NCBI GenBank assembly: GCA_029269725.1
Contig: JARJHS010000005.1
Span: forward strand, 292,608-356,607
Direction of reading: 5' to 3'
DNA length: 64,000 nt
From: Pollutibacter soli
GTDB taxonomy: Bacteria; Bacteroidota; Bacteroidia; Chitinophagales; Chitinophagaceae
Part shown: in pieces, positions 10,357 through 47,679 of the stretch
Position numbering within the stretch: the first letter of the stretch is position 1
Layout: each line of letters opens with the position of its first letter
The notes under the pieces: model-generated
Databases searched by the model: none
Told to the model about the DNA's origin: nothing
The model's input: the letters and a program-made list of their open reading frames with translations, nothing else
Position numbers and translations under genes: made by a program

Positions 10357-10370
10357 CATGTATATACAAG
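10357..10370 (+). promoter_or_regulatory. Regulon operator, distal SusC copy
   Basis: CATGTATATACAAG, one mismatch from the perfect palindrome CTTGTATATACAAG. It lies 132 bp upstream of the promoter-proximal copy and has no obvious -7 box beside it on the plus strand. A second site at this distance could support cooperative binding or looping (inference). Confidence 0.7.
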
Positions 10371-10488
10371 AATTTCGACGAAAAGGAACAAACGCGACTT
10401 TTTTTGCAATCGAATGAATTTTTTGAAACGCAGGCCAGTAAAGGTTTTCGCGAAAATTTACCACTCGTAAAAAAAAATTATTCAAAAA

Positions 10489-10519
10489 CATGTATATACA
10501 AGATATAATCCTATATTTG
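10489..10519 (+). promoter_or_regulatory. SusC operator and promoter
   Basis: The operator CATGTATATACAAG (10489-10502) is followed after 9 bp by TATATTTG (10512-10519), an exact match to the Bacteroidota -7 element TAnnTTTG. The operator therefore overlaps the spacer and the -33 region, where a GntR-type protein would control polymerase access. The predicted transcript has a leader of about 95 bases before the SusC ATG. Confidence 0.78.
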
Positions 10520-10618
10520 AGTGGAACAAGGGTGGCTGTATGAAATTTCCACACCGTTGTTTTAGAATTTTTCAGGGTTTCAGTTGTATTTAAATCATAG
10601 TAACCAAAAAACGATTGC

Positions 10619-13600
10619 ATGAAAAAGCAGACTGCTTGTCCTTCCCACAAGTATTTGACGACATTCGGGCGAAGAATAAGGAAAGGCTTATTCTTATCGG
10701 TATTTATGCTCACCGGGGTAGCTGCTCAGCTGACCGCGGCGCCGGAATCAGAAAACAATCTCCGGCATTTTCAACAAACAATTACGGTCACCGGTACCGT
10801 ACGGGACATGAATGGTTCGCCAGTGCCCGGCGCCTCCATCACTGTTAAAGGAACCAAACAAGGAACCACTACCAATTCGGATGGTGCATTTTCAATTGCA
10901 GTTCCTTCGGAGCAATCTGTACTCGTTGTTGAGCATACAGGTTATGTTTCACAGGAGTTCAGGGTAGGAAGTCAGCGGGCATTGGATGTTGTGCTGAACA
11001 TAAAAAATACCTCACTAGATTCAGTAGTGGTGATCGGTTATGGTACAGCACGTAAGTCTGACCTTACGGGTTCTGTTGGTGGTGTAAAACAGGCAACGCT
11101 TGCTGAAAGACCAGCGCCATCACTTGCACAGGGTCTTGCGGGCAGGATCGCGGGTGTACAGGTAAACTCAAACTCCGGTCGGCCGGGCGGAAGAAACAAC
11201 GTACGTATCCGCGGTTTCAGTTCAATCAATACTTCGAACAACCCGTTATATGTGATCGACGGAGTTGCGATGCCGGTGGGTATACAGGTGCAGGCCACAA
11301 ACGCAATTGACTATATCAACCCTGATGATATCGTTTCAGTGGAAGTATTAAAAGATGCGTCTTCAACAGCAATATATGGTGCACGCGGTGCGAATGGCGT
11401 TATCCTCGTAACTACAAGAAGAGGTCGTAACAACACTCCCGGTCGCGTAAGCTATAATGGTCAGTTCAGCACTAATACGCTGGGGCCAAATCCATACGAA
11501 GTACTCAACGCACAGCAGTACCTCGATGTTGAAGATCTGGCATATGCAAACATGGCGAAGTTTGACCCTGCAGGCTGGGCAGCGGGTAAATATACTTCAC
11601 GCAATCCTGCACTCACAAGAACGGACCCGCGTGTTTTCGATGCAAATGGTAAACCGAAATATGACACTGACTGGATGGAAGAAAGTATTCAACATAAACT
11701 TTCTCAGAACCATGATCTGAGTTTTACAGGGGGTGGCAGTACAGGTTCATACTCTATCGGTCTCGGTTATCGCGATGATCAGGGGCTGTTGCTCAATTCA
11801 TTTTTAAGAAGATATTCTGCACGTGTGGCAGCTGATGAACAGGTTAAGAAGTGGTTGAAAGTTGGCGTCACACTCAGCTATAATAATCAGGAGGAAAATA
11901 TAGTTGACCAGGATTACCAGGTGATGCGTAACATCGCTGAAGGTCTTCCTTTTCAACCTGTGAAATATGATGATGGCCGTTGGTCATGGAGTGGTGATTA
12001 TCCCTTTGCTGAGCCTTTCTGGAATCCCGTTCAGCTACTTACTGAAAGGAAATTCATTGTGAAGAGCCAGACTACCATGGGATCAATTTATTCTGATATT
12101 GATTTCACAAAAGATCTGCAGATGCGCACTGTACTGGGTGCAAATGTGTTGAACCAGGAAATTGATCAGGCAGTCAGTCGCGGCTTACAACCCAGTACTT
12201 CAGGTGGTGCAAGTATCAATAACAGTAAAGAGACTTTCTGGTCATTGGAAAACTACTTTACTTATACAAAACGCATTGGTACTGATCATGACCTGAAAGC
12301 CCTGTTGGGTCTGTCATGGCAACACCAGGATTTTAATTCTTCTGCAGTCGGTATTCAAAATTTTTCTACTGATTATTTTCAGTACAATAACCTTGGAGCA
12401 GGAAGCTTCAATCCTACTTATGGTTCCGGACGTTCTTCATTCGCATTCAACTCTTACTTTGGACGCGTTAACTATGCGTTTAAAAACAAGTACCTCGTAA
12501 CAGTAACGGGTCGTGCAGACGGTTCATCAAGATTCGGGGACAATCATAAATATGCATTCTTCCCTTCTGCAGCTTTGGCATGGAGAGTATCTGATGAAGC
12601 GTTCCTGCAGAATAATAAATTGATCTCTCACCTGAAACTCCGTACCAGCTACGGTTTGACGGGTAACTCAGAAATTCCGCCCTACACTTCGCTTTCTGTT
12701 CTTAGTTCAGGATACGTTGGAATTCTTGGTGATGCCCGTGTAGGAGGCACCGGTCTTGGTCGCCTCGCAAACCCTGATCTTCGTTGGGAGAAAACAGCAC
12801 AGTTTGATTTTGGATTCGAACTGGGCATGTTCAACAACAGGTTGAATCTTGAAGCTGATCTTTATTACAGGAAAACAACAGATATGCTGTTGGATGCGCC
12901 TGTGGCAAGAACCAGTGGTTATGCAACGATCAGGAAGAACGTAGGTTCCATGGAGAATAAAGGTCTTGAGTTGACATTGAATGCACTTGTTATCAGTCAG
13001 AAAAACTTCTCATGGAACACGGCATTCAACGTTTCCTTCAACAGGAATAAAGTCTTGTCTCTCGCCACTCCGGCTGATATCTTCGGCGTAGGCGGACCTG
13101 GTTTCACTAACCAGACAAACATAATCCGTGTAGGCGAACCCGTGGGTGCTTACTGGGGGCTTGTACGTCTCGGTACCTGGAGTGAAGCAGAAGCTGCTGA
13201 AGCTGCGAAATATACCAGCTACAGAAACGGTTTGACACTGTTGCCTGGTGATATCAAATACCTGGATGTAAACGGCGACTATGTTATCAACGATGCAGAC
13301 AGGATGATCATTGGTAATGGTTACCCGAACGCTTACGGCGGATGGGCAAATAACCTTCGTTTCAAAGACTGGGAATTCATTCTCGAACTTCAGTATTCAT
13401 TCGGTAACGACATCCTGGATCAGACTAAACACTCCAGTGAAGACCGCCAGTCATTGGCTAACAGTTATAAGAGTGTATTGAATGCATGGACTCCTCAGAA
13501 TCAGAATACACCCATCGCCCAGATCCGTGATACAAGAGCTGGTTATGTAACCAACGTGGATAGCCATTGGGTAGAGGATGGAAGTTTCATCAGAGGTAAA

Positions 13601-13840
13601 AACATTTTGCTCGCCTATAATTTCAAAGGCACAATGCTCGAGAGAATTCATATCAGTAAACTGCGTCTGTTCGCTTCCGTACAGAACTTTTTCCTGATCA
13701 CGAAGTATCCGAACGGCGATCCTGAAATTACGCTCAACACATTTGGTAACGAATCCAACAGGGTATTTGCACAGGGTCAGAACTTCCACGCATATCCTAA
13801 ATCAACCGTTTGGATGTTTGGTGTTTCTGTAGGATTCTAA
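10619..13840 (+). CDS. SusC/RagA-type TonB-linked outer membrane protein
   Basis: A 1073-residue outer-membrane transporter. After a signal peptide (ending near VAAQLTAAPE) comes a carboxypeptidase-like regulatory domain (about residues 57-135: VTGTVRDMNGSPVPGASITV through the conserved GYVSQEF). A TonB plug follows, with VVVIGYGTARKSDLTGSVGGV and the SusC hallmark NNVRIRGFSSINTSNNPLYVIDG. The remainder is the beta-barrel, ending in an aromatic-rich FGVSVGF. It imports glycan fragments with its SusD partner, energised by TonB. It is first in the operon, 27 bp before SusD, behind an operator-controlled promoter. There is no sigma/anti-sigma pair beside it, so control is probably by the GntR protein. 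Confidence 0.97.
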   Translation: MKKQTACPSHKYLTTFGRRIRKGLFLSVFMLTGVAAQLTAAPESENNLRHFQQTITVTGTVRDMNGSPVPGASITVKGTKQGTTTNSDGAFSIAVPSEQSVLVVEHTGYVSQEFRVGSQRALDVVLNIKNTSLDSVVVIGYGTARKSDLTGSVGGVKQATLAERPAPSLAQGLAGRIAGVQVNSNSGRPGGRNNVRIRGFSSINTSNNPLYVIDGVAMPVGIQVQATNAIDYINPDDIVSVEVLKDASSTAIYGARGANGVILVTTRRGRNNTPGRVSYNGQFSTNTLGPNPYEVLNAQQYLDVEDLAYANMAKFDPAGWAAGKYTSRNPALTRTDPRVFDANGKPKYDTDWMEESIQHKLSQNHDLSFTGGGSTGSYSIGLGYRDDQGLLLNSFLRRYSARVAADEQVKKWLKVGVTLSYNNQEENIVDQDYQVMRNIAEGLPFQPVKYDDGRWSWSGDYPFAEPFWNPVQLLTERKFIVKSQTTMGSIYSDIDFTKDLQMRTVLGANVLNQEIDQAVSRGLQPSTSGGASINNSKETFWSLENYFTYTKRIGTDHDLKALLGLSWQHQDFNSSAVGIQNFSTDYFQYNNLGAGSFNPTYGSGRSSFAFNSYFGRVNYAFKNKYLVTVTGRADGSSRFGDNHKYAFFPSAALAWRVSDEAFLQNNKLISHLKLRTSYGLTGNSEIPPYTSLSVLSSGYVGILGDARVGGTGLGRLANPDLRWEKTAQFDFGFELGMFNNRLNLEADLYYRKTTDMLLDAPVARTSGYATIRKNVGSMENKGLELTLNALVISQKNFSWNTAFNVSFNRNKVLSLATPADIFGVGGPGFTNQTNIIRVGEPVGAYWGLVRLGTWSEAEAAEAAKYTSYRNGLTLLPGDIKYLDVNGDYVINDADRMIIGNGYPNAYGGWANNLRFKDWEFILELQYSFGNDILDQTKHSSEDRQSLANSYKSVLNAWTPQNQNTPIAQIRDTRAGYVTNVDSHWVEDGSFIRGKNILLAYNFKGTMLERIHISKLRLFASVQNFFLITKYPNGDPEITLNTFGNESNRVFAQGQNFHAYPKSTVWMFGVSVGF

Positions 13841-13867
13841 TACTAACCTTATTAAACGAATAATCAT

Positions 13868-15409
13868 ATGTTACGTCATAAATCAAAAATAACTTCACTG
13901 GCCTTAGCGGCGCTCCTGTTTGCGGGCACGGGCTGTTCAAAGTTTCTTGACGAGCGTGATCCTTCGAATCTCACGCCGGACAATTTTTACACGATTCCGC
14001 AACATGCTGACGCAGCCATCGCTTCAGTGTACGCACAAACCAGGTTTATCGTAGGTGGTGCGAACATCATTTCAATCAACTACCAGATGGCGGATGCATT
14101 GACAGGTATTGCAAGTACCGAGTCTGCACAGAACTCCGATCTGAATAACCTGCTGGGTCTGGCACATGATGCGGGCAACCAGCACATCATCAACTGGTGG
14201 AATGGCTTGTATAACGTGATCGCACAGGCGAACCTGGTTCTTGACAAGGTTCCCGGCATTAATCCTATGGATGAGGCCACCAAAAACAAAATCCTTGGCC
14301 AGGCGGCTTTCCTCCGCGCATGGGCCTATTTTTACGCGGTACAATACTGGGGCGATGTTCCATTGATCCTGAAACCTCAGACTGCTACTTCAGAAGATTT
14401 TCTGCCTACGCGTACACCTGCATCTGCAGTTTATGATCAGATCGTATTGGATCTGAAAGCTGCTGAAGGTGCCGGATTGCCCTGGACGGATGCAACCGGT
14501 CGTGTTTCACAGGCAGCTGCAAAAGCCCTGCTGGCAAAAGTATACTTAACAATGGCAGGGTTTCCGCTGAACAAAGGCGCAGAGTATTACAAGCTGGCTG
14601 CGGACAAGGCAAAAGAAATCATCAACAATCCAGGTACAATCAACCTGTTCCCTGATTATCTTTCTATTCACACTCCTTCCAAAAAGAATACCGTTGAGCA
14701 TATCTTCCAGATTCAGTTCGTGGCAGGTATCGCCAGTAATAATGATATGCAGATTCTTTATCTGCCAAACTTCAAACCTATTACTGCTTACACTGCCAAC
14801 TTCGGTACTACAGTTCCTATTCCTCAGTTCTATAATTCTTATGAAGCTGGCGACAAAAGAACGAAAGACAGGGAAGGTTATTTCTACACTACTTATTTCC
14901 AGGGCGGCTACGGTGCATCCTATGATCTTGGTGCGCCATATATCTTCAAACATTTCGACGTAGTAGCTAACGGAAGCCCAGGGGTGCCCGGTACTGCTAA
15001 CAGCAGCCTGAATCAGCCACAGATTCGCTTTGCAGACGTATTGTTGATTTATGCCGAAGCACAGAATGAAGTGGGTGGCCCGGATCAATCAACTGTTGAC
15101 GCGCTGAAAAGAATCCGTGATCGTGCTGGGCTTTCAACACCTGCTGTCGGCAGCTTTACAAAAGAAAGTTTCCGTGAAGCAGTATGGCGCGAGCGTTGGT
15201 ATGAACTGGCATATGAAAACATTCTCTGGTTTGATATGATCAGAACAAGGAAAGTGTTCAATGTAACTACAAAAGGATTTGATGATTTCGTTGGCCATAT
15301 CAACCTGAGCACCAACAAACCTTTGGCTGAAAAACATTTGTTACTGCCATTGCCACGTCCTGAGATGCAGAACAATCCAAACCTGCAACCTCAGAATCCT
15401 GGATACTGA
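13868..15409 (+). CDS. SusD/RagB-type glycan-binding lipoprotein
   Basis: A 513-residue surface lipoprotein with lipobox A-G-T-G-C (Cys23). The N-terminal CSKFLDERDPSNLTPDNFYT, the central AFLRAWAYFYAVQYWGDVPLIL (TPR-like helices) and the C-terminal RERWYELAYENILWFDMIRTRK and LLLPLPRPEMQNNPNLQPQNPGY are all SusD signatures. It caps the SusC barrel and captures the substrate. It lies 27 bp behind SusC. A strong stem-loop follows at 15444-15474, before the DUF4185 gene. Confidence 0.97.
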   Translation: MLRHKSKITSLALAALLFAGTGCSKFLDERDPSNLTPDNFYTIPQHADAAIASVYAQTRFIVGGANIISINYQMADALTGIASTESAQNSDLNNLLGLAHDAGNQHIINWWNGLYNVIAQANLVLDKVPGINPMDEATKNKILGQAAFLRAWAYFYAVQYWGDVPLILKPQTATSEDFLPTRTPASAVYDQIVLDLKAAEGAGLPWTDATGRVSQAAAKALLAKVYLTMAGFPLNKGAEYYKLAADKAKEIINNPGTINLFPDYLSIHTPSKKNTVEHIFQIQFVAGIASNNDMQILYLPNFKPITAYTANFGTTVPIPQFYNSYEAGDKRTKDREGYFYTTYFQGGYGASYDLGAPYIFKHFDVVANGSPGVPGTANSSLNQPQIRFADVLLIYAEAQNEVGGPDQSTVDALKRIRDRAGLSTPAVGSFTKESFREAVWRERWYELAYENILWFDMIRTRKVFNVTTKGFDDFVGHINLSTNKPLAEKHLLLPLPRPEMQNNPNLQPQNPGY

Positions 15410-18946: not shown

Positions 18947-18984
18947 CATGTATATACAAGTTGTCCGCTTAATTTTTATATTTG
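18947..18984 (+). promoter_or_regulatory. E1alpha operon operator and promoter
   Basis: The operator CATGTATATACAAG (18947-18960) is followed after 16 bp by TATATTTG (18977-18984), an exact -7 element. The ATG of the E1alpha gene is only 5 bp further on, so the predicted transcription start coincides with the start codon. The transcript would be leaderless or nearly so, unless another promoter is used. Confidence 0.75.
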
Positions 18985-28532: not shown

Positions 28533-28550
28533 GCAGCAGGCAGTCTCACT

Positions 28551-31016: not shown

Positions 31017-31169
31017 GGTATAACGCAGAACGTGTAACGTAAAACGTCAGAGCTCGCGTAACCTGAGTATTGACTAAAAGTGGAAAACATTTTATATTTT
31101 TTTGACAGCATTGAAATAGCTTAGGCCTACGTTTAACGTTCAACTTTCAACGATTGCAAATAAACCATC

Positions 31170-32912: not shown

Positions 32913-32925
32913 AAAAACAAAACGT

Positions 32926-33615
32926 ATGAACAGGAGAGAGACATTAAAAGCGCTCGCAATATCAACGATTGGAACAGGTGCAATTCTTACCGGATGCGAC
33001 CCCGTCGATAAAACAAAAGCAGCTGAAACTTCAGGTGCTGCCGCTGAATTATTTGGTCAGACACCAGAGGAAATCGAACGAAATAGGAAAATTGCAGCAG
33101 AAAAATTTCTCACCGCTGCTGAATTGAGTACAATCACAGTGCTCGGCGACTGGATAATTCCCAAAGATGAAAAATCCGGATCTGCCTCTGATGCTGGCGT
33201 TCCTGCATTTATTGATTTTATCGTGAAGGATCAGCCGCGATTGCAAACGCCGATCCGTGGCGGACTTCGCTGGATCGATATGAAGGCTGCCAATATGTAT
33301 GGGACTTCGTTTACGGGTAGCAGTAAGGAACAACAACAGGTAATCCTCGATCTGATTGCATATCCTGAAGATGTTCTTCCCGAAAACAAACAGGGCGCTG
33401 CATTTTTCACGCAACTTCGCAATCTCGTTGCCATGGGATTTTTCAGCAGTAAAATGGGCATTGAGGACATGGGTTACCAGGGCAACAAGCCCAATGCCTG
33501 GGATGGCGTGCCTGAGGATGTTCTGAAACAGTACAACCTTGCCTACGACGAACAGACACTAAAAGAATGTCTGAAAATTGAGGATAGAGGTAAGATAATG
33601 GAATGGCCGGCTTAG
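32926..33615 (+). CDS. Gluconate 2-dehydrogenase subunit 3 family protein
   Basis: A 229-residue small subunit. The N-terminus MNRRETLKALAISTIGTGAILTGC combines a twin-arginine-like motif with a lipobox-like L-T-G-C, so the protein is probably exported by Tat and may be lipid-anchored. The domain contains FLTAAELSTITVLGDWIIPKDEKSGSASDAGVPAFIDFIV and ends with NAWDGVPEDVLKQY, as in the gamma subunits of FAD-dependent sugar dehydrogenases. It is needed for folding, export and membrane association of the GMC subunit encoded directly upstream. Confidence 0.92.
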   Translation: MNRRETLKALAISTIGTGAILTGCDPVDKTKAAETSGAAAELFGQTPEEIERNRKIAAEKFLTAAELSTITVLGDWIIPKDEKSGSASDAGVPAFIDFIVKDQPRLQTPIRGGLRWIDMKAANMYGTSFTGSSKEQQQVILDLIAYPEDVLPENKQGAAFFTQLRNLVAMGFFSSKMGIEDMGYQGNKPNAWDGVPEDVLKQYNLAYDEQTLKECLKIEDRGKIMEWPA

Positions 33616-34692: not shown

Positions 34693-34740
34693 CTTGTATA
34701 TACAAGCTGATTTCCCTATTTTTAAACATGTATATACAAG
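34693..34740 (+). promoter_or_regulatory. Twin operators flanking the GH38 promoter
   Basis: A perfect CTTGTATATACAAG (34693-34706) is followed after 10 bp by TATTTTTA (34717-34724), a -7-like box, and after 2 bp more by a second operator CATGTATATACAAG (34727-34740) lying over the predicted transcription start. The operators are 34 bp apart start to start. A protein bound at the second site would block initiation, which favours repression. Confidence 0.78.
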
Positions 34741-37422: not shown

Positions 37423-37444
37423 CACCGGAATATATCCAAAGACT

Positions 37445-39703
37445 ATGAAGAGAAGGGAATTTTTAGTTAATTCTGCGATGGCAACAGCCGGGTTGAGTAT
37501 ATCACCTGCAATAGGTAAAGCCGGAATGGTGGACCGGCCTGATGCAAAAAATTATCCTTTTCTCTGGGGATCTGCTTACTATCGCGCACCCATACCCGAA
37601 CCGGAACTTTGGGATGGCGATTTCAAAAAGATGCAGGAGCTGGGCTTCAACAATGTGAAATTCCTGATGCAGTGGCGTTGGTCGCATATTGCAGAGGACA
37701 AATACGATTTTGAAGATTTTAAACAGCTGTTGACCATTGCAGAAAAGTACGGGATTAATATTACGATAAACAACCTCTTTGATGTATCACCGCATTGGCT
37801 TTTTGAAAAATATCCGGATGCCAGACAGGTGATGAATAATGGTAGAATCATTGAACCGTTCGCGGTTGGTCATCGTCATATCGGAGGACATCCCGGTCCC
37901 TGTTATTCTCATCCCGGCGCACGCAAAGAGCGTCAGAAATTTCTGATAGAAGCAGTTAAAACTTTAAAGCCATACAAGGCTGTAAATATGTGGGATGTAT
38001 GGAATGAACCTGAATTGTCGTTCCCGCAGCGTTCACCAATTGATACTGAAAAACTGGTTTGTTATTGCAAATATTGCGAAGCTGATTTTCGTATCTATCT
38101 GCAAAAAAAATATCAGGATCTGAAAAGCCTAAACTATGTATGGGGTAGAAATTATCCGGAGTGGAAATATGTAGAAATGCCCCGATCCCATAGTACGTTT
38201 GTTGATTTTATCGATTGGCGAGAGTTTCATTCTGCTGTAATGACGGATGAAGCAAAATGGAGAATGGAAATTGTACGTGCCAATGACCCTTCCAAAATAG
38301 TTTTTCTTCATGTGGTGCCCAACACCATGATTCCGTTTAATGCAGTAAGTACCTGCACGGATGATTTTGAAGTGGCGAAACTGGGTGATGTATTTGCTGC
38401 TACAATGAATGCAGGCCCATTGTTTACCCCGCAGGTGATTTCCGCCGGAGTCGGAAAGATTTGTTACAACGTCGAAAACCACATCAACGGCGGCGGCATT
38501 TCTATGCATCAGCGAAAAATTGATCTCGCAGCATTACAAAGAGACATCATTCCGCAACTCGGACTTGGAATTAAAGGCATTGTTTTCTGGCAATACCGTT
38601 CAGAAATACTGGGGAATGAATCACCCGCCTGGGGATTGGTGAATACGGATGGGACAGACAGAGAAGTAACCAGGGGTATCAGAACTTTCTGGAAACAATT
38701 GAGTCCGCATACCAATCTCCTGATGAAATCTTTTCCGGATGCACCACCTGTTGGTATCTGGAAAAGCAGGAAGAATGAGATTTTTCACTACTGCATGTAT
38801 GGAAACCTGACGAATCTTTTTGATAACGTCTTCGGATATGCGAATACCTGCTACTGGAACAGTTATGGCTACCGTTATGTTTCCGGAGATATGCTTTCTG
38901 CCGGAGATCTTGCAGGAATAAAATTGCTGATTCTTCCATCTGCCTATTATCTCACTAATGAAGAAGCGAAGTCGATCATCGATTGGGTAAATAGAGGCGG
39001 AACCCTATTAACAGAAGCACATACGGGCGGATATAACGGATCAACTGGAAGGCATAGCCGATATATGCCGGGATTGGGATTGGCCGAAGCTTTTGGTATC
39101 AAAGAAGATTTCACGACAGCTTCTTTTCATTTGCAAATGGATAAATCCGAAGCGCTTAGCTCTGCCGGACCAATGAATGCAGAGACAAAAAAGCTACTCG
39201 AGTCTACTGGTGTAACCGGTGGGAAATTTTACCCGATTCAACTTAAAGATGGAACTGTACTTTGGTCGGCGCTGAGGTATGCCGAAATTTCCGGAACAGG
39301 ATTTACTGTTGAAGGTTATTTCGAAAAAGACCATCCTGTCGCCATTTCAAAACCAGTAGGGAAGGGATATGTGCATTATTATTCCGGATCTCTCGGGATC
39401 GGTGCATCAAAAGAAAATTCCGGTCTGGCAAAATTACTAACCAGGATTTGTGATAAAGCTGGAATCAGGAAAACCTTACAACTCAATTCTCCAGAGATTA
39501 ATGCTGTTCGTGTTGATGAGTTAAAGAACGGTGGGAAAACAGAATTCATCACGGTGCAAAACGCGATGGATAAATCTGTCACTGTCAATCTGAATAGTCC
39601 GGGGGATTTTAAAGGATTATATAGCGAAACTATTTTGAAATCTGGTAGCGGAGTGAAACTGCAGGTTCCTCCCAGATTTGCAGATATTTTTATCAGGAAA
39701 TAA
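37445..39703 (+). CDS. GH42-like beta-galactosidase family enzyme
   Basis: A 752-residue exported enzyme with a twin-arginine-like start (MKRREFLVNSAMATAGLSIS). The catalytic TIM barrel includes FNNVKFLMQWRWSHIAEDKYDFED and the acid/base E188 in W-D-V-W-N-E-P. The nucleophile is likely the glutamate in C-Y-N-V-E-N-H. A cysteine-rich CYCKYCEADF segment resembles the zinc cluster of GH42 enzymes. Next comes a trimerisation (glutamine-amidotransferase-like) domain with DLAGIKLLILPSAYYLTNEE and GGTLLTEAHTGGYN, then a small C-terminal beta domain. GH42 enzymes normally cut beta-galactosides; linkage is not certain. It is co-transcribed with GH38 and the next gene. Confidence 0.85.
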   Translation: MKRREFLVNSAMATAGLSISPAIGKAGMVDRPDAKNYPFLWGSAYYRAPIPEPELWDGDFKKMQELGFNNVKFLMQWRWSHIAEDKYDFEDFKQLLTIAEKYGINITINNLFDVSPHWLFEKYPDARQVMNNGRIIEPFAVGHRHIGGHPGPCYSHPGARKERQKFLIEAVKTLKPYKAVNMWDVWNEPELSFPQRSPIDTEKLVCYCKYCEADFRIYLQKKYQDLKSLNYVWGRNYPEWKYVEMPRSHSTFVDFIDWREFHSAVMTDEAKWRMEIVRANDPSKIVFLHVVPNTMIPFNAVSTCTDDFEVAKLGDVFAATMNAGPLFTPQVISAGVGKICYNVENHINGGGISMHQRKIDLAALQRDIIPQLGLGIKGIVFWQYRSEILGNESPAWGLVNTDGTDREVTRGIRTFWKQLSPHTNLLMKSFPDAPPVGIWKSRKNEIFHYCMYGNLTNLFDNVFGYANTCYWNSYGYRYVSGDMLSAGDLAGIKLLILPSAYYLTNEEAKSIIDWVNRGGTLLTEAHTGGYNGSTGRHSRYMPGLGLAEAFGIKEDFTTASFHLQMDKSEALSSAGPMNAETKKLLESTGVTGGKFYPIQLKDGTVLWSALRYAEISGTGFTVEGYFEKDHPVAISKPVGKGYVHYYSGSLGIGASKENSGLAKLLTRICDKAGIRKTLQLNSPEINAVRVDELKNGGKTEFITVQNAMDKSVTVNLNSPGDFKGLYSETILKSGSGVKLQVPPRFADIFIRK

Positions 39704-39710
39704 AAAAGAC

Positions 39711-41279
39711 ATGACTCTACAAAAAAGATATTTGGCTGTTTACTCTGTTTTCAGTTGTCTGTTTTCTGTTTCTGCCTCTGCCCAGGTTGCAACTAATCTT
39801 ATTCTTCCTGATAAAAACATCACAGAAGCATATGAAAAGGCCGCATCACAAAATGTACTGGCCGCAGTCAACAACAAAATATTTCCCGGATATTTTTCAG
39901 TCTGCGCCGACGGTCTTGGTTTCGGTTATGGCAACACGTATCCTTCGCTGGATGGGCACCAGATGAGTGACGCCTTGCTTTGGCTGGGACAAACAGAAGT
40001 AGTAAAGGGCAACTGGGATTATGTTCGTGGATTTCAGAAATCAAAAGGAGAATTACCTATTGCAATTATTCCTGCCGAAGCTGGAAAAATGATCGGGCCA
40101 AAAGGATTCCAGGCGCCTGTAGATCCCAATGGAGGTTTGTACAAACATTGGGTACCAAAAGATCCGTTGAAGCCGTTGGCAGGTCCGACGTATATTCAGA
40201 ATGCTGATGTGATTTTTCGATTCACTCAGGACAAACAATGGCTGATCAGTCAGCTTCCTTCCATCAACCTAACAGCTGATTATCTTGCCTCGATGGTGAA
40301 TGCACAAGGAGATGTCGGAGGCGCGGGTTACTATGTGGAGCGACCCACACGTGTAGAATTTGATGGTGTATCACAAGGTCATGCAGCAGATGCTTTTTAC
40401 AGACTGGCTGCATTAAACACCATTGCCGGCGATAAAAAATCAGCTGAAAAGTACACAGCACTTGCAAATAAAATCAAATCGAATTTTCAGAACCGTTTCT
40501 GGATGAAAGATCATTTCGCAGAGTACTATAATCCGGAAAGAGGATTTATATCGAATCATGGTTATACCGATGTAGACTGGACATCGATCGCCACGCATAT
40601 GGCTACCCGCGAACAGCAAATTATACTCTGGCCAAACCTGATCAGTCAGCCCTCTTTCTATTATAACGGGATGCCGACAGGTATTTCAACAAAGCCTGAA
40701 ACCTATGAAGCCTGGGAGACTACGTATGCTGACAACCAGGATCTTGCAGCGATGGGAAGGGTTTGGTATATCGAAGCTTGGGCAAGAGCTAATATGAATG
40801 ATGGAAAAGGACTCGTAGAAAGTATTCAACGTGTTTGCAAAGAAGGTCGCGATAGTGGGTATTACTGGCGTGAGCGATACAATGCCAAAGGTGGTTATGG
40901 CGCAAAAAAATACAATGAGTATCCCGCGAACCTGATCCGGATTACACAACGATTTTTGTTTGGAGTTGAGTTTGGTCTTGATGGATCAATTGAACTTTCT
41001 CCAACGGCTCCTGCAGATTTTTGGACTGCTGGTTTTGGTCAGACGATCGACTGGCGCGGCATTCAGTTTACCTACCTGATGAAAGACAAATCGATTTCGG
41101 GGGAGTACCAAAGTGAAAAGGACCAGGTGGTAAAAGTCAGGATAAAAGAAAAGATGGATCCTGCAAAAGCAAAAGTGCTGATCAACGGAAAGTCATTGAA
41201 AAGTAAGGCAGATGGAGAATGGCTGGTGTTTATACTCCCAAAATCATCTGATAAAATTCCTTTGGTGGTGAGTTTTTAA
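39711..41279 (+). CDS. Six-hairpin (alpha/alpha)6 glycosidase-like protein
   Basis: A 522-residue exported protein (signal ending VSASAQ). The pattern DGLGFGYGNTYPSLDGHQMSDALLWLGQ, FDGVSQGHAADAFYRLAALNTIAGDKKSAEKYTALANKIKSNF and KKYNEYPANLIRITQRFLFGVE is that of an (alpha/alpha)6 barrel glycosidase such as GH63/GH78-type clans, but I cannot fix the family. Candidate catalytic acids lie in T-Y-E-A-W-E-T and D-V-D-W-T. The preferred ATG at 39711 is 7 bp after the preceding gene; the upstream in-frame start at 39678 would overlap it. It is co-transcribed with GH38 and GH42. Confidence 0.75.
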   Translation: MTLQKRYLAVYSVFSCLFSVSASAQVATNLILPDKNITEAYEKAASQNVLAAVNNKIFPGYFSVCADGLGFGYGNTYPSLDGHQMSDALLWLGQTEVVKGNWDYVRGFQKSKGELPIAIIPAEAGKMIGPKGFQAPVDPNGGLYKHWVPKDPLKPLAGPTYIQNADVIFRFTQDKQWLISQLPSINLTADYLASMVNAQGDVGGAGYYVERPTRVEFDGVSQGHAADAFYRLAALNTIAGDKKSAEKYTALANKIKSNFQNRFWMKDHFAEYYNPERGFISNHGYTDVDWTSIATHMATREQQIILWPNLISQPSFYYNGMPTGISTKPETYEAWETTYADNQDLAAMGRVWYIEAWARANMNDGKGLVESIQRVCKEGRDSGYYWRERYNAKGGYGAKKYNEYPANLIRITQRFLFGVEFGLDGSIELSPTAPADFWTAGFGQTIDWRGIQFTYLMKDKSISGEYQSEKDQVVKVRIKEKMDPAKAKVLINGKSLKSKADGEWLVFILPKSSDKIPLVVSF

Positions 41280-41290
41280 TTTGAGTTGGA

Positions 41291-43609
41291 TTGAAAAAGA
41301 AATCATTTCATATTGTTTTGTTGATTTCAGTGGGATTTTTTTCAATTCCATCATGTTTTAATAAAGATGGAGGAGATGATCAAAGGTTGCCGGAAAAAGT
41401 CAGCTATAATTTTCATATCCGGCCCATTCTATCAGATAAATGTTTTGCCTGTCATGGACCCGATAAAAATGCAAGACAGGCCGGACTTCGGTTAGATGTT
41501 GCAGATAGCGCTTATGCTGTTTTAAAGGAATCCCCTGGTCAATATGCAATAGTTCCGGGCAATCCGCTGAATTCCGTCGTCTTCAGCAGGATCTCATCCG
41601 AAGATACTTCCGAATTGATGCCGCCACCTTCTTCACATCTCTCTCTCAATAGTTTTGAGGTCCGGTTGATTGAAAGATGGATCAGGCAGGGGGCCACCTA
41701 CGAAAAGCATTGGGCATTTACAGCACCGGTTAAATCTGCGGTGCCAAAAGTTGACAATGAAGCATGGGCCAAAAATGAAATCGATCGTTTTATACTCCAT
41801 ACTCTTGAAGAAAGAAAATCAAAGCCCAATCCGGAATCAGATAGGGAAAGGTTGCTTAAAAAAGTGAGCCTCGATGTGACAGGACTTCTTCCATCAGAAA
41901 AAATGATGGATGATTTTCTGAATGACAAATCCGAAAATGCCTACGAGAAGATAGTAGATACCCTGCTCGCACAGCGATCTTATGGTGAACAGATGGCACT
42001 GCTTTGGATGGATCTCGCACGCTATGCCGATTCACACGGCTACCAGGATGATGGCTATCGTACACAATGGCCCTGGCGCGACTGGGTGATTTATGCCTTC
42101 AATAAAAATTTATCGTACAAAGATTTTGTGAGCTGGCAGATAGCAGGTGATCTCTTGCCGGATCGCTCTAAAGAACAATTGCTTGCTACCGGATTTAACC
42201 GCAATCATAAAATCACTGAAGAGGGTGGTGTAATTGATGAAGAGTATCGTGTGGAATATGTTACTGATCGAACAAACACTTTCAGTAAAGCAATCCTTGG
42301 TATTACAATGGAATGTGCCCATTGTCATGATCATAAATACGACCCGTTTTCACAAAAGGAACACTACGAGTTGTTCGCATTCTTCAACAACGTGACAGAA
42401 GTCGGGCAGGAGTCGGTTATTGGTGGGCCTGAGACCTATGCTAAGAAGCCTTTTATGTCTATCTCAAATGAAGACGCAAACACGATTCTACATTTTGTAA
42501 ATAAGAAAGACACCGGAAAGCTGATAGTTTCCATCATGGGCGAACGGGATACTGCAAGAAAATCGTATATACTTGACCGTGGACAATATGATCAGCACAA
42601 AACAGAAGTGTATCCTTCGACACCCGAGGCCATTCTTCCCTTTAAACCATCCTGGCCAAAGAACCGGTTGGGGCTTGCCGAATGGCTTTTTGATTCTGCA
42701 AACCCGCTTACGGCGCGCGTTTTTGTCAATCTTCTCTGGCAGGAATTTTTCGGGACCGGCATTGTAAAAACTTCCGGGGATTTCGGAATGCAGGGAGCGT
42801 TACCAACACATCCGGAATTGCTGGATTGGCTCTCCGTAGATTTCAGAGAGAATGGTTGGGATATAAAAAGGCTGGTCAGGCAGATGGTTACGTCTGCAAC
42901 GTATCGTCAATCGGTAATAACGGATCCGGATAAACGCAAAAAAGATCCGGAGAATAAATGGCTGAGCTATTCTTCACGAAACCGTGTAAAGGCAGAAACA
43001 GTGAGAGATATCATTCTTGGTTCTGCAGGTGTTTTGAATAAAGAAATCGGCGGTCCCAGTGTTAAGCCTTATCAGCCATCGGGGTTATGGGAGGCAGCAG
43101 CGTCCACCGGGGGAAGCTTTGGTATTCTTGGTACTTACAAACAGGACCACCAGGAAAAATTATATCGTCGCGGTATGTACACTTTCATTAAGCGAACTGT
43201 ACCTCCACCTTCGATGATGATATTTGATGCAAGCAACCGGGATCAGTGTGAAGTATTCAGGTTGAAAACAAACACACCATTGCAGGCATTGGTGATGATG
43301 AATGATCCGGTAGTCCTTGAAGCATCAAGACTTCATGCTGCGAAAATGATGAACGAAGAGAAGAGTGCTGATAAGATGATCAGCCGGGCTTTCAGAAGAA
43401 TTGAATGCAGAACTGCAACAGGTGGGGAAATGAATGTGCTCATGAAATTTTATAATGAAGAGCTGAATTCGTTGACAAAAGAGAAGGCTGTCAGATTGTT
43501 GCAATACGGTGAATCAAAAATCGATACCAACCTTGATATTGTGCAACTCGCTGCATTGACTAAAGTGATAAATACGATCTATAATCTCGAAGAAACTATT
43601 GTTCGGTAA
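41291..43609 (+). CDS. PSCyt1-DUF1549-DUF1553 cytochrome-type lipoprotein
   Basis: A 772-residue lipoprotein (lipobox S-I-P-S-C, Cys21). The N-terminal Planctomycete-type cytochrome c domain carries the haem motif C51-F-A-C54-H55-G-P-D. It is followed by DUF1549 (EIDRFILHTLEERKSKPNPESDRERLLKKVSLDVTGLLPS, LLWMDLARYADSHGYQDDGYR) and DUF1553 (LAEWLFDSANPLTARVFVNLLWQEFFGTGIVKTSGDFGMQG and LQALVMMNDPVVLEASR). The only start in this frame before the signal is a TTG at 41291. These proteins are abundant in Planctomycetes and some Bacteroidota, usually paired with a DUF1501 partner as here. Their activity is unproven; a role in oxidative carbohydrate breakdown has been proposed. Confidence 0.92.
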   Translation: MKKKSFHIVLLISVGFFSIPSCFNKDGGDDQRLPEKVSYNFHIRPILSDKCFACHGPDKNARQAGLRLDVADSAYAVLKESPGQYAIVPGNPLNSVVFSRISSEDTSELMPPPSSHLSLNSFEVRLIERWIRQGATYEKHWAFTAPVKSAVPKVDNEAWAKNEIDRFILHTLEERKSKPNPESDRERLLKKVSLDVTGLLPSEKMMDDFLNDKSENAYEKIVDTLLAQRSYGEQMALLWMDLARYADSHGYQDDGYRTQWPWRDWVIYAFNKNLSYKDFVSWQIAGDLLPDRSKEQLLATGFNRNHKITEEGGVIDEEYRVEYVTDRTNTFSKAILGITMECAHCHDHKYDPFSQKEHYELFAFFNNVTEVGQESVIGGPETYAKKPFMSISNEDANTILHFVNKKDTGKLIVSIMGERDTARKSYILDRGQYDQHKTEVYPSTPEAILPFKPSWPKNRLGLAEWLFDSANPLTARVFVNLLWQEFFGTGIVKTSGDFGMQGALPTHPELLDWLSVDFRENGWDIKRLVRQMVTSATYRQSVITDPDKRKKDPENKWLSYSSRNRVKAETVRDIILGSAGVLNKEIGGPSVKPYQPSGLWEAAASTGGSFGILGTYKQDHQEKLYRRGMYTFIKRTVPPPSMMIFDASNRDQCEVFRLKTNTPLQALVMMNDPVVLEASRLHAAKMMNEEKSADKMISRAFRRIECRTATGGEMNVLMKFYNEELNSLTKEKAVRLLQYGESKIDTNLDIVQLAALTKVINTIYNLEETIVR

Positions 43610-43619
43610 AACCTCGTGT

Positions 43620-45071
43620 ATGTACAGGGAACTTTATGAACATGCATTACATATTAATCGACGCAGATTTTTGTCACGGCTTGCTGTCGGCGTCGGATCC
43701 GTGGCACTTGGTTCGCTATTGATACCGGATCTTTTTAAAAGAAAGGAAGAGGAAGAAACGATGATGAAAGGTCTCGCACATTTTGCACCAAAAGCAAAAC
43801 GGGTGATCTATCTTTTTCAGAACGGCGCGCCTTCACATCTTGAATCGTTTGATTATAAACCTAAACTCAGGGAGCTCTGGGGAACGGAGTTGCCAGCGTC
43901 AGTTCGTGATGGGCAACGACTAACCGGAATGAGTTCTGGTCAGAAATCTTTTCCTCTTGTTGGGTCATTTTTTGATTTCAGGCAATACGGTGAATCTCAG
44001 GCGTGGGTAAGTGATTTATTTCCTTATATGTCAAAGATTGTTGACGAACTCTGTATTATTCGTTCGATGCATACAGAGGCAATCAATCACGATCCGGCAT
44101 TGACTTTTTTTCAAACCGGAGCACAACAGGGCAACCGGCCCAGCATGGGCTCATGGGTAAGCTACGGATTGGGAAGTGAAAACGAGAACCTGCCTGCATT
44201 TACAGTATTGCTGTCCAAAGGAAAGGGAAATGGGCAGGGCGTGTATTCCAAATTGTGGTCAAATGGTTTTCTTGATTCAATTTACCAGGGAGTACAGTTC
44301 AGTAATGGAGAAGATCCTGTTTTGTATCTGAAGGATCCGGAGGGGATGACACGAGAGGATCGCAGGAAAACATTGGACAGGCTTGCAGAATTAAATGAAC
44401 TTTCGTTTAAAGAATTGGGAGATCCTGAAATTCACTCGAAAGTGAGTCAGTATGAAATGGCTTACCGGATGCAGATGGCTGTTCCGGAAGCGATGGATTT
44501 ATCAAAAGAGCCAGACGAGATTGTTCGGTTATACGGACCGGATTGTCTTGTCGCAGGCACATATTCAGCCAATTGCCTGCTTGCAAGAAAACTTTCAGAG
44601 AACGGCGTTCGTTTTGTACAACTTTATCACCAGGGGTGGGATCAGCATCAGAACCTGCCAACGGAAATGGCAGGACAGGCGAAAGATACAGATCAGCCAT
44701 CGGCAGCGCTGATTACTGATTTAAAACAGCGAGGGTTGCTTGATGAAACGCTGGTGATCTGGGGTGGAGAATTCGGTCGTACTAATTATAGCCAGGGATT
44801 ACTTACAAAAGAAAATTATGGCCGCGATCATCATCCACGCTGTTTTAGTCTGTGGCTTGCAGGGGGTGGAATAAAACCCGGAATTGTATACGGAGAAACT
44901 GATGAATTCGGATACAATATTGTACGCGACCCTGTACATGTACATGATCTGCATGCCACCGTACTTCATCAATTGGGGCTTGATCATGAAAAGCTGATAT
45001 TCAAACATCTCGGTCGTCGTTATCGCCTGACCGATGTTGCAGGGAAACTGGTACCTGGAATTATCGCATAA
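43620..45071 (+). CDS. DUF1501 Tat-exported protein
   Basis: A 483-residue protein of the DUF1501 family (alkaline-phosphatase-like fold). It starts with a twin-arginine signal, N-R-R-R-F-L-S-R-L-A-V-G. Core motifs are AKRVIYLFQNGAPSHLESFDYKPKL, LCIIRSMHTEAINHDPALTFFQTG, RPSMGSWVSYGLGSEN and LVIWGGEFGRTNYSQG, with NYGRDHHPRCFSLWLAGGGIKPG near the end. The family invariably accompanies DUF1549/DUF1553 proteins. An upstream TTG at 43599 would overlap the preceding gene; the ATG at 43620 leaves a 10-bp gap and is preferred. Confidence 0.93.
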   Translation: MYRELYEHALHINRRRFLSRLAVGVGSVALGSLLIPDLFKRKEEEETMMKGLAHFAPKAKRVIYLFQNGAPSHLESFDYKPKLRELWGTELPASVRDGQRLTGMSSGQKSFPLVGSFFDFRQYGESQAWVSDLFPYMSKIVDELCIIRSMHTEAINHDPALTFFQTGAQQGNRPSMGSWVSYGLGSENENLPAFTVLLSKGKGNGQGVYSKLWSNGFLDSIYQGVQFSNGEDPVLYLKDPEGMTREDRRKTLDRLAELNELSFKELGDPEIHSKVSQYEMAYRMQMAVPEAMDLSKEPDEIVRLYGPDCLVAGTYSANCLLARKLSENGVRFVQLYHQGWDQHQNLPTEMAGQAKDTDQPSAALITDLKQRGLLDETLVIWGGEFGRTNYSQGLLTKENYGRDHHPRCFSLWLAGGGIKPGIVYGETDEFGYNIVRDPVHVHDLHATVLHQLGLDHEKLIFKHLGRRYRLTDVAGKLVPGIIA

Positions 45072-45084
45072 TCAACTCGCACGG

Positions 45085-47232
45085 ATGAAAACAGTCAATA
45101 AACAGATTGCGGTAAATGTATTAATCGCTCTATCTGCTTTTATCCTGTTCCTTCTTCTTTTCCTGGATCAGATTGAATTACCAGACCTTTTGCAATCTAT
45201 TGGCCGTATGCACCCGGTTCTGTTGCATTTCCCGATAGTGTTGCTATTGATTTCATTCGTTTTTGTATGTATAAAGAAAACTCCAGGAAATAATACCTGG
45301 AGTGCAATGGAGGAATGGTTTCTTTTTGCCGGAGCTGCACTGGCAGGGCTAACCGCAATTATGGGAATCTTCCTTTCAAAGGAGTCTGGATACAATGATG
45401 AGATACTTTTTATTCATCAGTGGGGAGCTATTGTTTTATTTTTCATTGCTGTAATTCTTTACATATTCAACAAAAGGTTTTCACAAAAAATTATTGCCGC
45501 GCGGATTTTTGCAATCTCGGGGACTGTTGTGTTGATAATTTCCGGGCATTATGGGGGTGAGCTTACACACGGGTCCGGTTATCTTACAGGTCCGTTGACT
45601 TCAGCGCAGGAGCAAAAACAGGTTGCATTCCAAGATGCAATGATTTATGAAGATCTGATCAGGCCGGTATTTGCGGCAAAATGCCAGGGCTGCCACAATC
45701 CATCGAAATTAAAAGGGCAGTTATCCCTGACCGATAGCGCAATGCTATTGAAGGGTGGCAAATCTGGAAGGCTTTTTGTGCATGGGTCTCCTGAACTGAG
45801 CCTGATCATGGAACGAATTCATCTTCCGGAGTCCGATAAAAAACATATGCCTCCTGCCGGCAAAACGCAATTGTCAAGGGCTGAAGAAGATCTGATCAAT
45901 GCGTGGATAAAAGACAGCGCAAGATTCAATGTAAAAATTGCTTCTTATCCTGAAGAGGATAGTTTAAGAAAAATGGCCATCGCTTTTCTGCCGGTTCGCA
46001 AAGAAGAAAAATTTGACTTTGCTGCGACGGATGAAAGTAAAATGGAGAAACTCAATAATGATTTTCGTAAGGTCAGGCCCATTGCTGCCAATTCTCCCGC
46101 TTTGGCCGTAAATTTCTTTAACAATCGAGGCTGGTCTGCAAAATCAATTGAAGAATTGGTGGGTGTAAAACAGCAGATCGTTTCAATGGAGCTGCATAAA
46201 GTTCCTGTAACAAATGATGACCTTAAACACATCGCAGGCTTTGTTAACCTGCGGCGATTGAACCTGAATTTTACTCAGATTACAGCTGAGGGCCTGGTTC
46301 ATTTATTACCGTTGGAACACCTGCAATCGCTTTCCTTAACGGGTACAAAAATGGAAATGGAATCTTTACAGCGATATTTGAATGCGGCCAAATCATTAAA
46401 TCAACTTGCTTTCTGGAATTCAGGACTTTCAAAGGAAAATATCCGCAGCCTCGTTGCAGCAAATAAACATATCAGAATTAATGCAGGGAATGAAGAAGAG
46501 GATCAAATGATGCTTCAACTGAATAAAGTTCAATTGAAAAATTCCAGTTCGGTGTTCAGCGAAACTGCCTTCCTGCAATTGAAACACCCAATTCCCGGTG
46601 TTGACATCAGGTATACACTTGATGGCAAAGATCCCGATAGTATTGTTTCGCCTGTTTACAATGGAAAAGATAAAGTTGATAAATCTGTTCTGATAAAAGC
46701 AAGGGCATACAAATCCGGATGGATTTCAGGAGATATAACTGAGTTCAGGTTGTATAAGAGCCGGTATAAACCTGATGCTGTTCAATTGATCACAGCTGTT
46801 CACGAACGTTTTCCGGCTTTGGGAACGGAGAGTTTTTTCGATGGGAAGATCGGAGGCTACAGTCAGTACGGCGACCGTTGGGTGGGATTTTCAGCATTCC
46901 CCATGGAGCTATTGCTGTTACTGAATGATACCGTCAACCTCCGTTCTGTCACTATAAATTATTTGTCGAATCCACCAGCTGGTTTCTTTCCGCCCGGTTC
47001 CTTGGAAATCTGGGGTGGTGAGGATGTTCAGCATTTGAAACTGGTTAGAAAAAAAAATCTGCCGGTCACCTCTAAAGATGAGAAGCTCAATATTTCTTCA
47101 GCGGAAATTAATTTCGATCGCCAAAAATTAAAGTGGATTAAAATCATTGCTCATCCGCAAACTTTTCCTTCCTGGCACAAAGCCAAAGGCAAACTTTCTG
47201 TTTTACTTATTGATGAAGTGCTGCTGAATTAA
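45085..47232 (+). CDS. DUF2231 / cytochrome c / leucine-rich / CHB_HEX_C membrane protein
   Basis: A 715-residue multidomain protein. Residues 1-155 hold about five membrane segments of the DUF2231 type (MHPVLLHFPIVLLL at 42-55). A PSCyt1 cytochrome domain follows with C200-Q-G-C203-H204. Residues about 360-470 contain leucine-rich-repeat-like stretches (LRRLNLNFTQITAEGLVHLLPLEHLQSLSLTGT). Then comes a chitobiase/hexosaminidase C-terminal-like domain (GVDIRYTLDGKDPDSIVSPVYNG) and a C-terminal discoidin-like beta domain. It is the usual third member of the DUF1549/DUF1501 group and may anchor the system and pass electrons. The ATG at 45085 avoids a 38-bp overlap that a start at 45034 would give. 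Confidence 0.88.
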   Translation: MKTVNKQIAVNVLIALSAFILFLLLFLDQIELPDLLQSIGRMHPVLLHFPIVLLLISFVFVCIKKTPGNNTWSAMEEWFLFAGAALAGLTAIMGIFLSKESGYNDEILFIHQWGAIVLFFIAVILYIFNKRFSQKIIAARIFAISGTVVLIISGHYGGELTHGSGYLTGPLTSAQEQKQVAFQDAMIYEDLIRPVFAAKCQGCHNPSKLKGQLSLTDSAMLLKGGKSGRLFVHGSPELSLIMERIHLPESDKKHMPPAGKTQLSRAEEDLINAWIKDSARFNVKIASYPEEDSLRKMAIAFLPVRKEEKFDFAATDESKMEKLNNDFRKVRPIAANSPALAVNFFNNRGWSAKSIEELVGVKQQIVSMELHKVPVTNDDLKHIAGFVNLRRLNLNFTQITAEGLVHLLPLEHLQSLSLTGTKMEMESLQRYLNAAKSLNQLAFWNSGLSKENIRSLVAANKHIRINAGNEEEDQMMLQLNKVQLKNSSSVFSETAFLQLKHPIPGVDIRYTLDGKDPDSIVSPVYNGKDKVDKSVLIKARAYKSGWISGDITEFRLYKSRYKPDAVQLITAVHERFPALGTESFFDGKIGGYSQYGDRWVGFSAFPMELLLLLNDTVNLRSVTINYLSNPPAGFFPPGSLEIWGGEDVQHLKLVRKKNLPVTSKDEKLNISSAEINFDRQKLKWIKIIAHPQTFPSWHKAKGKLSVLLIDEVLLN

Positions 47233-47448
47233 GGGAGGTTGTATGTTGCAGGTGTTTAAGTTATCAGTATCACCCCGCAGATTTGCCTGCAGAAAAATGT
47301 AAAGCATTAAATACTTAGCTGAAACATTTCGTATATATGTTCTGATTTGCCAAGAAAACAAATACAGCCAATCAATAGAAAAATACATTTGATTCCGGGA
47401 AAAACACTTTGGAAATTCCAAAAATGCTTTCGAATTTGCTGAAAGTTC

Positions 47449-47484
47449 CCAGGTATCCGATACTTGCAAGTATCGGATACCTGG
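47449..47484. repeat. 36-bp perfect palindrome (AGGTATCCGATACTTG family)
   Basis: Two exact 18-bp arms (CCAGGTATCCGATACTTG and its complement) meet without a loop. CGGGTTTTTCC follows on the plus strand, so it could double as a terminator for the preceding 715-residue protein gene. Its sequence family is different from the ACCTGCCAGGT repeats in the left part of the window, though both arms end in CCAGGT. Confidence 0.8.
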
Positions 47485-47642
47485 CGGGTTTTTCCGAAAT
47501 TTGTGAAAAGCACGAAACTTCAAAAATTTTCAACTTTATTTTCTTTTAGAATGGGTGCTTGGCACTAATCGCTACCCGCTATTTTCTCTTTTTGCCTTTT
47601 GCCTGCGGCCTAACAACTTCTATTGACTTAAAATAATTTCAA

Positions 47643-47679
47643 CTTGTATATACAAGATGCTGATTTTTCCCTATCTTTA
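47643..47679 (+). promoter_or_regulatory. Operator and promoter of the GH92 genes
   Basis: A perfect CTTGTATATACAAG (47643-47656) is followed after 15 bp by TATCTTTA (47672-47679). The GH92 ATG lies 45 bp further on. The spacing matches the E1alpha promoter class (16 bp) rather than the SusC class (9-10 bp). Confidence 0.77.

What the first reader, a model, noticed from the sequence alone, without database searches (positions are those of the whole stretch)
10357..47679. A 14-bp palindrome marks a multi-operon carbohydrate regulon
CTTGTATATACAAG or CATGTATATACAAG occurs at 10357, 10489, 18947, 29004, 34693, 34727 and 47643, with a degenerate copy at 27719 beside the only GntR gene (27816). 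I found none elsewhere in the window. Every copy but 10357 sits at a promoter, upstream of SusC, the E1alpha operon, the aldolase/dehydrogenase, GH38 and GH92. The perfect symmetry and size suit a GntR dimer. The asymmetric copies all have the CATG arm on the side away from the gene.
Basis: partly seen in the sequence, partly recalled or inferred. Interest (0 to 1): 0.8.

Follow-up and report, generated by a model that had tools for sequence, protein, structure and literature searches.

The report
Sugar-gene switch with conserved DNA docking site
A repeated 14-letter DNA palindrome in this Bacteroidota genome is very probably the docking site of one neighbouring repressor protein that switches a set of glycan-eating genes together; the protein family and this type of site are known, but this branch and the gene set it seems to control may be undescribed.

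Summary
Confirmed and extended. The seven exact copies and the degenerate 27719 copy are real. The own genome has 8 exact places: 7 in the window, 1 before a lactonase/dehydrogenase pair on another contig. The GntR at 27816 is the genome's only UTRA (HutC-type) protein. In the genus only the 2 of 41 genomes that have this gntR have the palindrome. Sites stand at orthologous promoters in relatives; the GH38 and SusC operator pairs are kept, so copy 10357 is no orphan. In 72 of 134 sites a -7-like box starts 23-25 bases after the operator start, so the arm often supplies the -33 TTG: probably repression by covering the promoter. NagR-type phosphate-pocket residues suggest a sugar-phosphate inducer. 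The core 12-mers equal the published TreR box, but the protein is not TreR. The arm-orientation rule fails at the off-window copy. Binding, effector and direction are unproven.

The parts
27816..28532 (+). GntR/HutC-type regulator: GntR HTH plus UTRA effector domain; the only UTRA protein found in the genome
   Evidence: (PF00392, PF07702); AlphaFold model resembling YydK, YvoA/NagR, DasR, PhnF
27719..27732 (.). Probable autoregulatory operator, degenerate (CATGTCTATACAAC); the close relative G033 has CATGTATATACAAC upstream of its gntR
10357..10370 (.). Distal operator of the SusC/SusD genes (CATGTATATACAAG), 132 bp from the proximal one; the relative G463 has such a pair 129 bp apart
10489..10502 (.). 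Proximal operator of SusC/SusD; -7-like TATATTTG at 10512-10519 (+23)
10619..13840 (+). SusC-type TonB-dependent receptor
13868..15409 (+). SusD-type lipoprotein
18947..18960 (.). Operator of the E1alpha genes; TATATTTG at 18977-18984 (+30); same CATG arm and +30 spacing in L067
18989..24899 (+). Putative operon: E1alpha, E1beta, class II aldolase, E2, lyxose/mannose-isomerase-like protein, PfkB kinase
29004..29017 (.). Operator of the aldolase-II/SDR gene; arm TTG, 20 nt, then TATCTTTA (29028-29035)
29067..33615 (+). Bifunctional aldolase/short-chain dehydrogenase, GMC oxidoreductase, gluconate-2-DH subunit 3 homologue
34693..34706 (.). GH38 operator 1, arm TTG as -33; -7-like TATTTTTA at 34717-34724
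34727..34740 (.). GH38 operator 2 at the presumed transcription start; the 34-bp spacing and CATG arm are kept in G033
34783..47232 (+). GH38 alpha-mannosidase, GH42-like, rhamnosidase/MGH1-like (weak), PSCyt-PSD1, DUF1501, PSCyt-DUF2231 (GH38 start taken as the in-frame ATG at 34783)
47643..47656 (.). Operator of the GH92 genes; TATCTTTA at 47672-47679 (+29); kept in G033
47725..52956 (+). Two GH92 family proteins and a 3-keto-disaccharide hydrolase

Best explanation
The palindrome (core TTGTATATACAA, best form ACTTGTATATACAAGT) is the operator of the HutC-type GntR regulator encoded at 27816. A regulator dimer sits on the operators, whose outer TTG often serves as the -33 promoter element, and so blocks the housekeeping sigma factor at SusCD, the E1/E2-aldolase-isomerase-kinase genes, the aldolase/dehydrogenase gene, GH38, GH92, its own gene and a distant lactonase/dehydrogenase pair. 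Two operators at SusC (132 bp apart) and at GH38 (34 bp apart) tighten the block. A phosphorylated sugar made from imported mannose-type glycans releases the protein. Supported by sequence: operator identity, pairing with this gntR clade, conserved placement, -33/-7 geometry. Inferred: repression rather than activation, inducer identity, cooperation of paired sites, mannoside substrate.
For: Genome specificity: 8 places against 0 for the control; only UTRA protein found in the genome. Palindrome counts without prior pattern around 80 homologous gntR loci put TGTATATACA (24 loci) and TTGTATATACAA (18 loci) first. CTTGT-N4-ACAAG within 300 bp upstream of gntR in 65 of 77 loci exactly and 73 of 77 with at most 1 mismatch; controls 14 and 40 of 3850. 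Genus: palindrome in 2 of 41 genomes, the only two of the 41 with the full-length orthologue. Exact 14-mer in 12 of 12 relatives' genomes, 29 sites, 25 within 50 kb of gntR (my arithmetic); in the order the own genome plus 4 of 197 others have it, and in those 4 no UTRA protein was found. Orthologous promoters keep sites in G033 and L067/G463. TAnnTTT[GAC] at +23 to +25 on either side in 72 of 134 sites, control 53 of 8531. Residues: R46 (NagR R48, reads G-4) 34 of 34; N36 (at the place of NagR R38, which reads G-5; the base here is T) 34 of 34; R131, R133, S164 (NagR phosphate ligands R133, R135, S165) 34 of 34.
Against: No binding or expression data. In L067 no site within 2 mismatches precedes the GH38 or GH92 homologue. 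The gntR site here is degenerate. Within the window only 29004 and 34693 fit TTG-N20-TAnnTTT exactly; 10489 (+23, ATG arm), 18947 (+30) and 47643 (+29) do not, and the -33 element was not found in Flavobacterium johnsoniae (PMC7366714, passage). 4 of 77 loci lack the site within 1 mismatch. A UTRA protein of another clade (L053, Val at position 36) also has GTATGTATATACAAAT upstream, so the core is not exclusive to this clade. The relatives are not independent lineages; NagR's sugar-contact Glu145 is Glu in 17 and Asp in 17 of 34, and its stacking Tyr167 is Leu here and Phe in 31 of 34, so the sugar differs.
Confidence: 0.88

Rival explanations
1. The palindrome is the site of another regulator (another GntR-type protein or a SusR/HTCS activator) and the UTRA-GntR is only a neighbour.
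For: The genome has three more hits to the GntR DNA-binding part, and glycan loci are often run by HTCS or SusR-like systems (PMC3878776, passages).
Against: The site lies upstream of 73 of 77 homologous gntR genes with at most 1 mismatch and is absent from the 39 congeners without this orthologue, 22 of which do have another GntR-domain hit (20 of 35, 2 of 4). Asn at HTH position 28 goes, weakly, with A/T at the operator position in the published survey.
Confidence: 0.06
2. The protein activates rather than represses, with the palindrome as an activator site.
For: Two sites stand 5-6 bp further from the -7-like box (18947 at +30, 47643 at +29), and 10357 lies far upstream.
Against: The commonest geometry puts the arm on the -33 element and GH38 operator 2 lies at the presumed start; NagR of the same subfamily is described as blocking transcription (PMC4333415, abstract passage).
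Confidence: 0.12
3. The repeats are a dispersed element or chance AT-rich sequence without a regulatory role.
For: The sequence is AT-rich; a dispersed extragenic repeat does exist in this genus.
Against: The 39 congeners without the gntR, 102.9 Mb by the rounded sizes, hold no copy; the sites recur at orthologous promoters of diverged genes.
Confidence: 0.01

Closest known systems
TreR of Bacillus (GntR/HutC, trehalose operon)
   Same: The TreR box of B. licheniformis is given as TTGTATATACAA and ATGTATATACAA (PMC11356801, one passage): exactly the two 12-mers found here. TreR is listed among HutC-subfamily regulators (PMC4494728, passage).
   Different: NCBIfam TreR model TIGR02404 scores 91.6 against a cut-off of 211.95; no treA/treP-type genes among the Pfam results for the genes at the operators; different phylum and promoter type.
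NagR/YvoA of B. subtilis and DasR (GntR/HutC)
   Same: Fold, DNA-reading Arg48 and wing Gly69 equivalents, phosphate-pocket residues.
   Different: NagR reads G at -5 with Arg38; here that residue is Asn and the base is T. No nag-type genes were seen at the operators.
ManR (BT2103) of Bacteroides thetaiotaomicron
   Same: A GntR-family regulon for mannose and alpha-mannosides with SusC/D-like proteins and mannosidases, predicted by comparative genomics (PMC3878776, passages).
   Different: Its motif is in a figure that is not held and its sequence was not fetched; orthology and domain type untested. The genes here (E1/E2, aldolases, PSCyt/DUF1501, 3-keto hydrolase) are not those named in the passages.
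HutC-subfamily consensus NyGTMTAKACNy (PMC4494728)
   Same: GTATATAC fits; GT and AC are 4 nt apart.
   Different: That survey held 1 HutC regulator from Bacteroidetes, reading its taxonomy columns as FadR, HutC, YtrA (passage).

Membership tests
GntR family, HutC subfamily | GntR winged HTH at the N-terminus | tested here: met
   PF00392, E 1.5e-17, 63.5 bits, cut-off 27
GntR family, HutC subfamily | UTRA effector domain of chorismate-lyase fold | tested here: met
   PF07702, 56.5 bits, cut-off 23.8; model matches UTRA structures
GntR family, HutC subfamily | Operator NyGTMTAKACNy | tested here: met
   GTATATAC in all seven exact window copies; that the protein binds them was not tested
TreR (trehalose repressor) | Score above the TreR equivalog cut-off | tested here: not met
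   91.6 against 211.95 bits
TreR (trehalose repressor) | TreR box | tested here: met
   Same 12-mers as in PMC11356801
TreR (trehalose repressor) | Controls treA/treP-type genes | tested here: not met
   No such genes among the Pfam results at the operators
NagR/DasR | Arg38-type contact with G at -5 | tested here: not met
   Asn in 34 of 34; T in the operator
ManR (BT2103) | Orthology with BT2103 and the same motif | not testable with these tools
   Sequence and logo not at hand; only text passages were read

The most novel reading that the evidence does not exclude
A Bacteroidota-wide, undescribed HutC clade whose operator doubles as the -33 promoter element, ancestrally paired with a 2-oxoacid dehydrogenase (E2 homologue near 55 of 80 gntR loci) and recruited in Chitinophagaceae and Sphingobacteriaceae to run alpha-mannoside loci that include a planctomycete-type cytochrome/DUF1501 module and 3-keto-sugar enzymes, switched by a ketose phosphate made by its own isomerase and kinase.
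Probability: 0.45. Interest if true: 0.55.

Novelty: new member of a known kind. Interest (0 to 1): 0.42.

Why it matters
Glycan loci of Bacteroidota are best known for HTCS and SusR-like control (PMC3878776, passages; ECF systems from background knowledge). Here one cytoplasmic HutC regulator appears to run import, hydrolysis and central catabolism together over 37 kb and at an unlinked pair of genes. The operator is exact enough that a string search finds candidate members in genomes carrying the gene (12 of 12 tried), which makes the unresolved sugar pathway testable. It also shows operators built into the unusual Bacteroidota promoter.

Tried and rejected
Degenerate genome matches: with up to 2 mismatches the count does not exceed the reversed control (75 against 83), so these were not used. 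Of the six single-mismatch places in the own genome (L009-L014), three (L010, L013, L014) lie at what look like sugar or sugar-acid genes by my reading of the translations, without a domain search, and three do not; candidates only. TreR identity was rejected on the model score and gene content. The four genomes of the order that have the 14-mer without a detected UTRA protein were looked at: 2 of their 5 sites lie inside an ORF by my caller; treated as chance. The exact sugar pathway could not be settled: UxuA (58828, above the NCBIfam cut-offs), SMP-30 and an SDR nearest the aldose-dehydrogenase model but below its cut-off (256.3 against 341) suggest an oxidative mannose route, but no site within 2 mismatches lies before UxuA. 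A palindrome search at gntR homologues of 34-38% identity gave sites at L050 and none at L051 and L055; L054 gave no output. Papers: only passages of PMC11356801, PMC3878776, PMC7366714, PMC4333415 and PMC4494728 (section 11 of the last in full) were seen; other titles were seen in search listings only. That the clade may be undescribed rests on searches in the open-access library only.

Full report
Observation. All eight coordinates are right. The palindrome is far above chance in the window (8 matches against a mean of 0.62 in shuffles, largest 3) and TTGTATATACAA is the only recurring 12-bp palindrome there. In the whole genome (37 contigs, 6,117,590 bases) the exact pattern CWTGTATATACAWG occurs at 8 places: 7 in the window and 1 at C5:108784; the reversed control has 0. 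With two mismatches the number does not exceed the control (75 against 83). The eighth place lies before an SMP-30/gluconolactonase-like gene followed by an SDR.

Who binds it. The gene at 27816 encodes GntR plus UTRA domains and is the only UTRA protein found in the genome, although three other hits to the GntR DNA-binding part exist. In the genus the palindrome occurs in 2 of 41 genomes, G000 and G033. These are the only two of the 41 with the full-length orthologue (93% identical in G033): 37 were searched and the other 4. G029 has a distant UTRA protein (27% identity) and no palindrome. The 39 other genomes, 102.9 Mb by their rounded sizes and several of them incomplete, hold no copy; 22 of them have some other GntR-domain hit (20 of 35, 2 of 4).

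Footprinting. A scan of named genomes found 182 relatives, of which the best 80 loci were kept. Counting all palindromes over the 80 loci without a prior pattern puts TGTATATACA (24 loci) and TTGTATATACAA (18 loci) first. Three loci with under 100 bp upstream of gntR were dropped. In the other 77, CTTGT-N4-ACAAG lies within 300 bp upstream exactly in 65 and with at most one mismatch in 73; random stretches of the same loci give 14 and 40 of 3850. The centre varies (ATAT, ATTT, AATT, CTAT and others) while the arms stay.

Regulon in relatives. Twelve genomes with a 55-79% identical orthologue were searched whole. 12 of 12 hold the exact CTTGTATATACAAG, 29 sites in all. From the contig ranges, 25 of the 29 lie within 50 kb of gntR; the exceptions are 1 of 1 in G459, 2 of 3 in G460 and 1 of 2 in G461. 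In 198 genomes of the order only the own genome and 4 others have it, and in those 4 no UTRA protein was found. I looked at 14 of the 29 sites, chosen because they lie away from gntR. None lies inside an ORF by my simple caller; two (L194, L197) overlap the first bases of a called ORF. The genes I judged downstream are GH92 (3), DeoC-type aldolase (3), GFO/IDH oxidoreductase (4), SusC (1), PSD1 (1), a sialate-type esterase (1) and one ambiguous case between a 3-keto-disaccharide hydrolase and a zeta-toxin-like kinase. The direction was chosen by eye from the nearby -7-like box.

Conserved architecture. In G033 the AldII/SDR, GH92 and gntR genes have a site upstream (that of gntR with one mismatch), and GH38 (86% identical) has both sites with the same 34-bp spacing and the same CATG arm. 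No G033 contig with the E1alpha or SusC promoter was in hand. In the syntenic Chitinophagaceae genome (L067, L200 = G463) E1alpha, gntR (one mismatch), AldII/SDR and SusC have sites. SusC (72.5% identical) has two, 129 bp apart, the distal one with the CATG arm; the window has 132 bp. So copy 10357 is a conserved distal operator. Of the four exact CATG-arm copies of the window, three have a CATG counterpart (10357, 18947, 34727) and one a CTTG counterpart (10489). Against this, no site within 2 mismatches precedes GH38 or GH92 in L067.

Mechanism. Bacteroides promoters carry TTTG near -33 and TAnnTTTG at -7 (PMC7366714, passage; the same passage says the -33 motif was not identified in Flavobacterium johnsoniae). 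Over 134 operator-like sites (arms with at most 1 mismatch, listed centres) in the loci at hand, TAnnTTT[GAC] starts 23-25 bases after the operator start on one side or the other in 72, against 53 of 8531 control positions; position +24 alone has 50 of 231 non-redundant flanks. In the window 29004 and 34693 fit TTG-N20-TAnnTTT exactly; 10489 has +23 with an ATG arm, 18947 +30 (and a weaker TAATTTTT at +23), 47643 +29; 10357 and 34727 have none. The simplest reading is repression by covering the promoter, with a second operator at the presumed start of GH38. This is inference.

Specificity and effector. By the alignment with NagR, Arg46 corresponds to Arg48 (reads G-4) and Gly67 to the wing Gly69, each 34 of 34 in an alignment of 34 of the 81 sequences at hand. 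Asn36 stands where Arg38 reads G-5 in NagR; the operator here has T. PMC4494728 section 11 reports Arg at HTH position 28 with G/C, and Asn weakly and without significance with A/T; residue 36 is that position by the Pfam alignment. Against exclusivity, a protein of another UTRA clade with Val there (L053) also has TGTATATACA upstream. Arg131, Arg133 and Ser164, equivalent to NagR phosphate ligands, are 34 of 34, which points to a sugar phosphate; the sugar-contact positions differ (Glu/Asp 17/17 for Glu145; Leu here, Phe in 31, for Tyr167). The AlphaFold model (pLDDT 85.4, pTM 0.67) matches YydK, YvoA/NagR, DasR and PhnF.

Biology. GH38 and GH92 proteins, a lyxose/mannose-isomerase-like protein (39.1 bits, above the Pfam cut-off of 20.8 but far below the NCBIfam equivalog cut-off), PfkB and aldolases suggest mannose-type glycans. 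The E1/E2 genes are notable: an E2 homologue lies in 55 of 80 gntR loci, E1alpha in 44 and E1beta in 41. Outside L067 identity is about 26-42%, and in the one distant locus examined by domain (L090) E1 is a fused protein, so orthology is not shown; many contigs are short.

Known things. The core 12-mers equal the published TreR box (PMC11356801, passage), but the protein is well below the TreR cut-off. ManR of B. thetaiotaomicron is the nearest functional precedent (PMC3878776, passages); kinship could not be tested. The clade and regulon look undescribed in searches of the held library, which lacks most subscription journals.

Noticed in passing
window 7880-8066: A tandem array of 17-bp units (TTTAAACCTGCCAGGTC-like), 8 registers; a related stretch at 3534-3562.
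   Followed up: no
window about 28527-28585: A hairpin-like extragenic element downstream of gntR; 34 of the 44 matches in the relative G033 are to it, so it looks like a dispersed REP-like repeat.
   Followed up: partly
window 25541-27619 and 17702-18919: Two proteins (692 and 405 aa) without a Pfam match at E 0.01 that are conserved in the syntenic relative L067 at 53.7% and 78.6% identity.
   Followed up: no
G000 C1:428776, C12:68145, C32:499218 (L010, L013, L014): Single-mismatch operator-like sites next to what look like sugar or sugar-acid genes by my reading of the translations; possible further regulon members.
   Followed up: partly
L022, L052, L053, L213: A second UTRA clade in the same class with LPNEV or LPNEI in place of LPSEN and ATGTA-type sequences upstream.
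   Followed up: no
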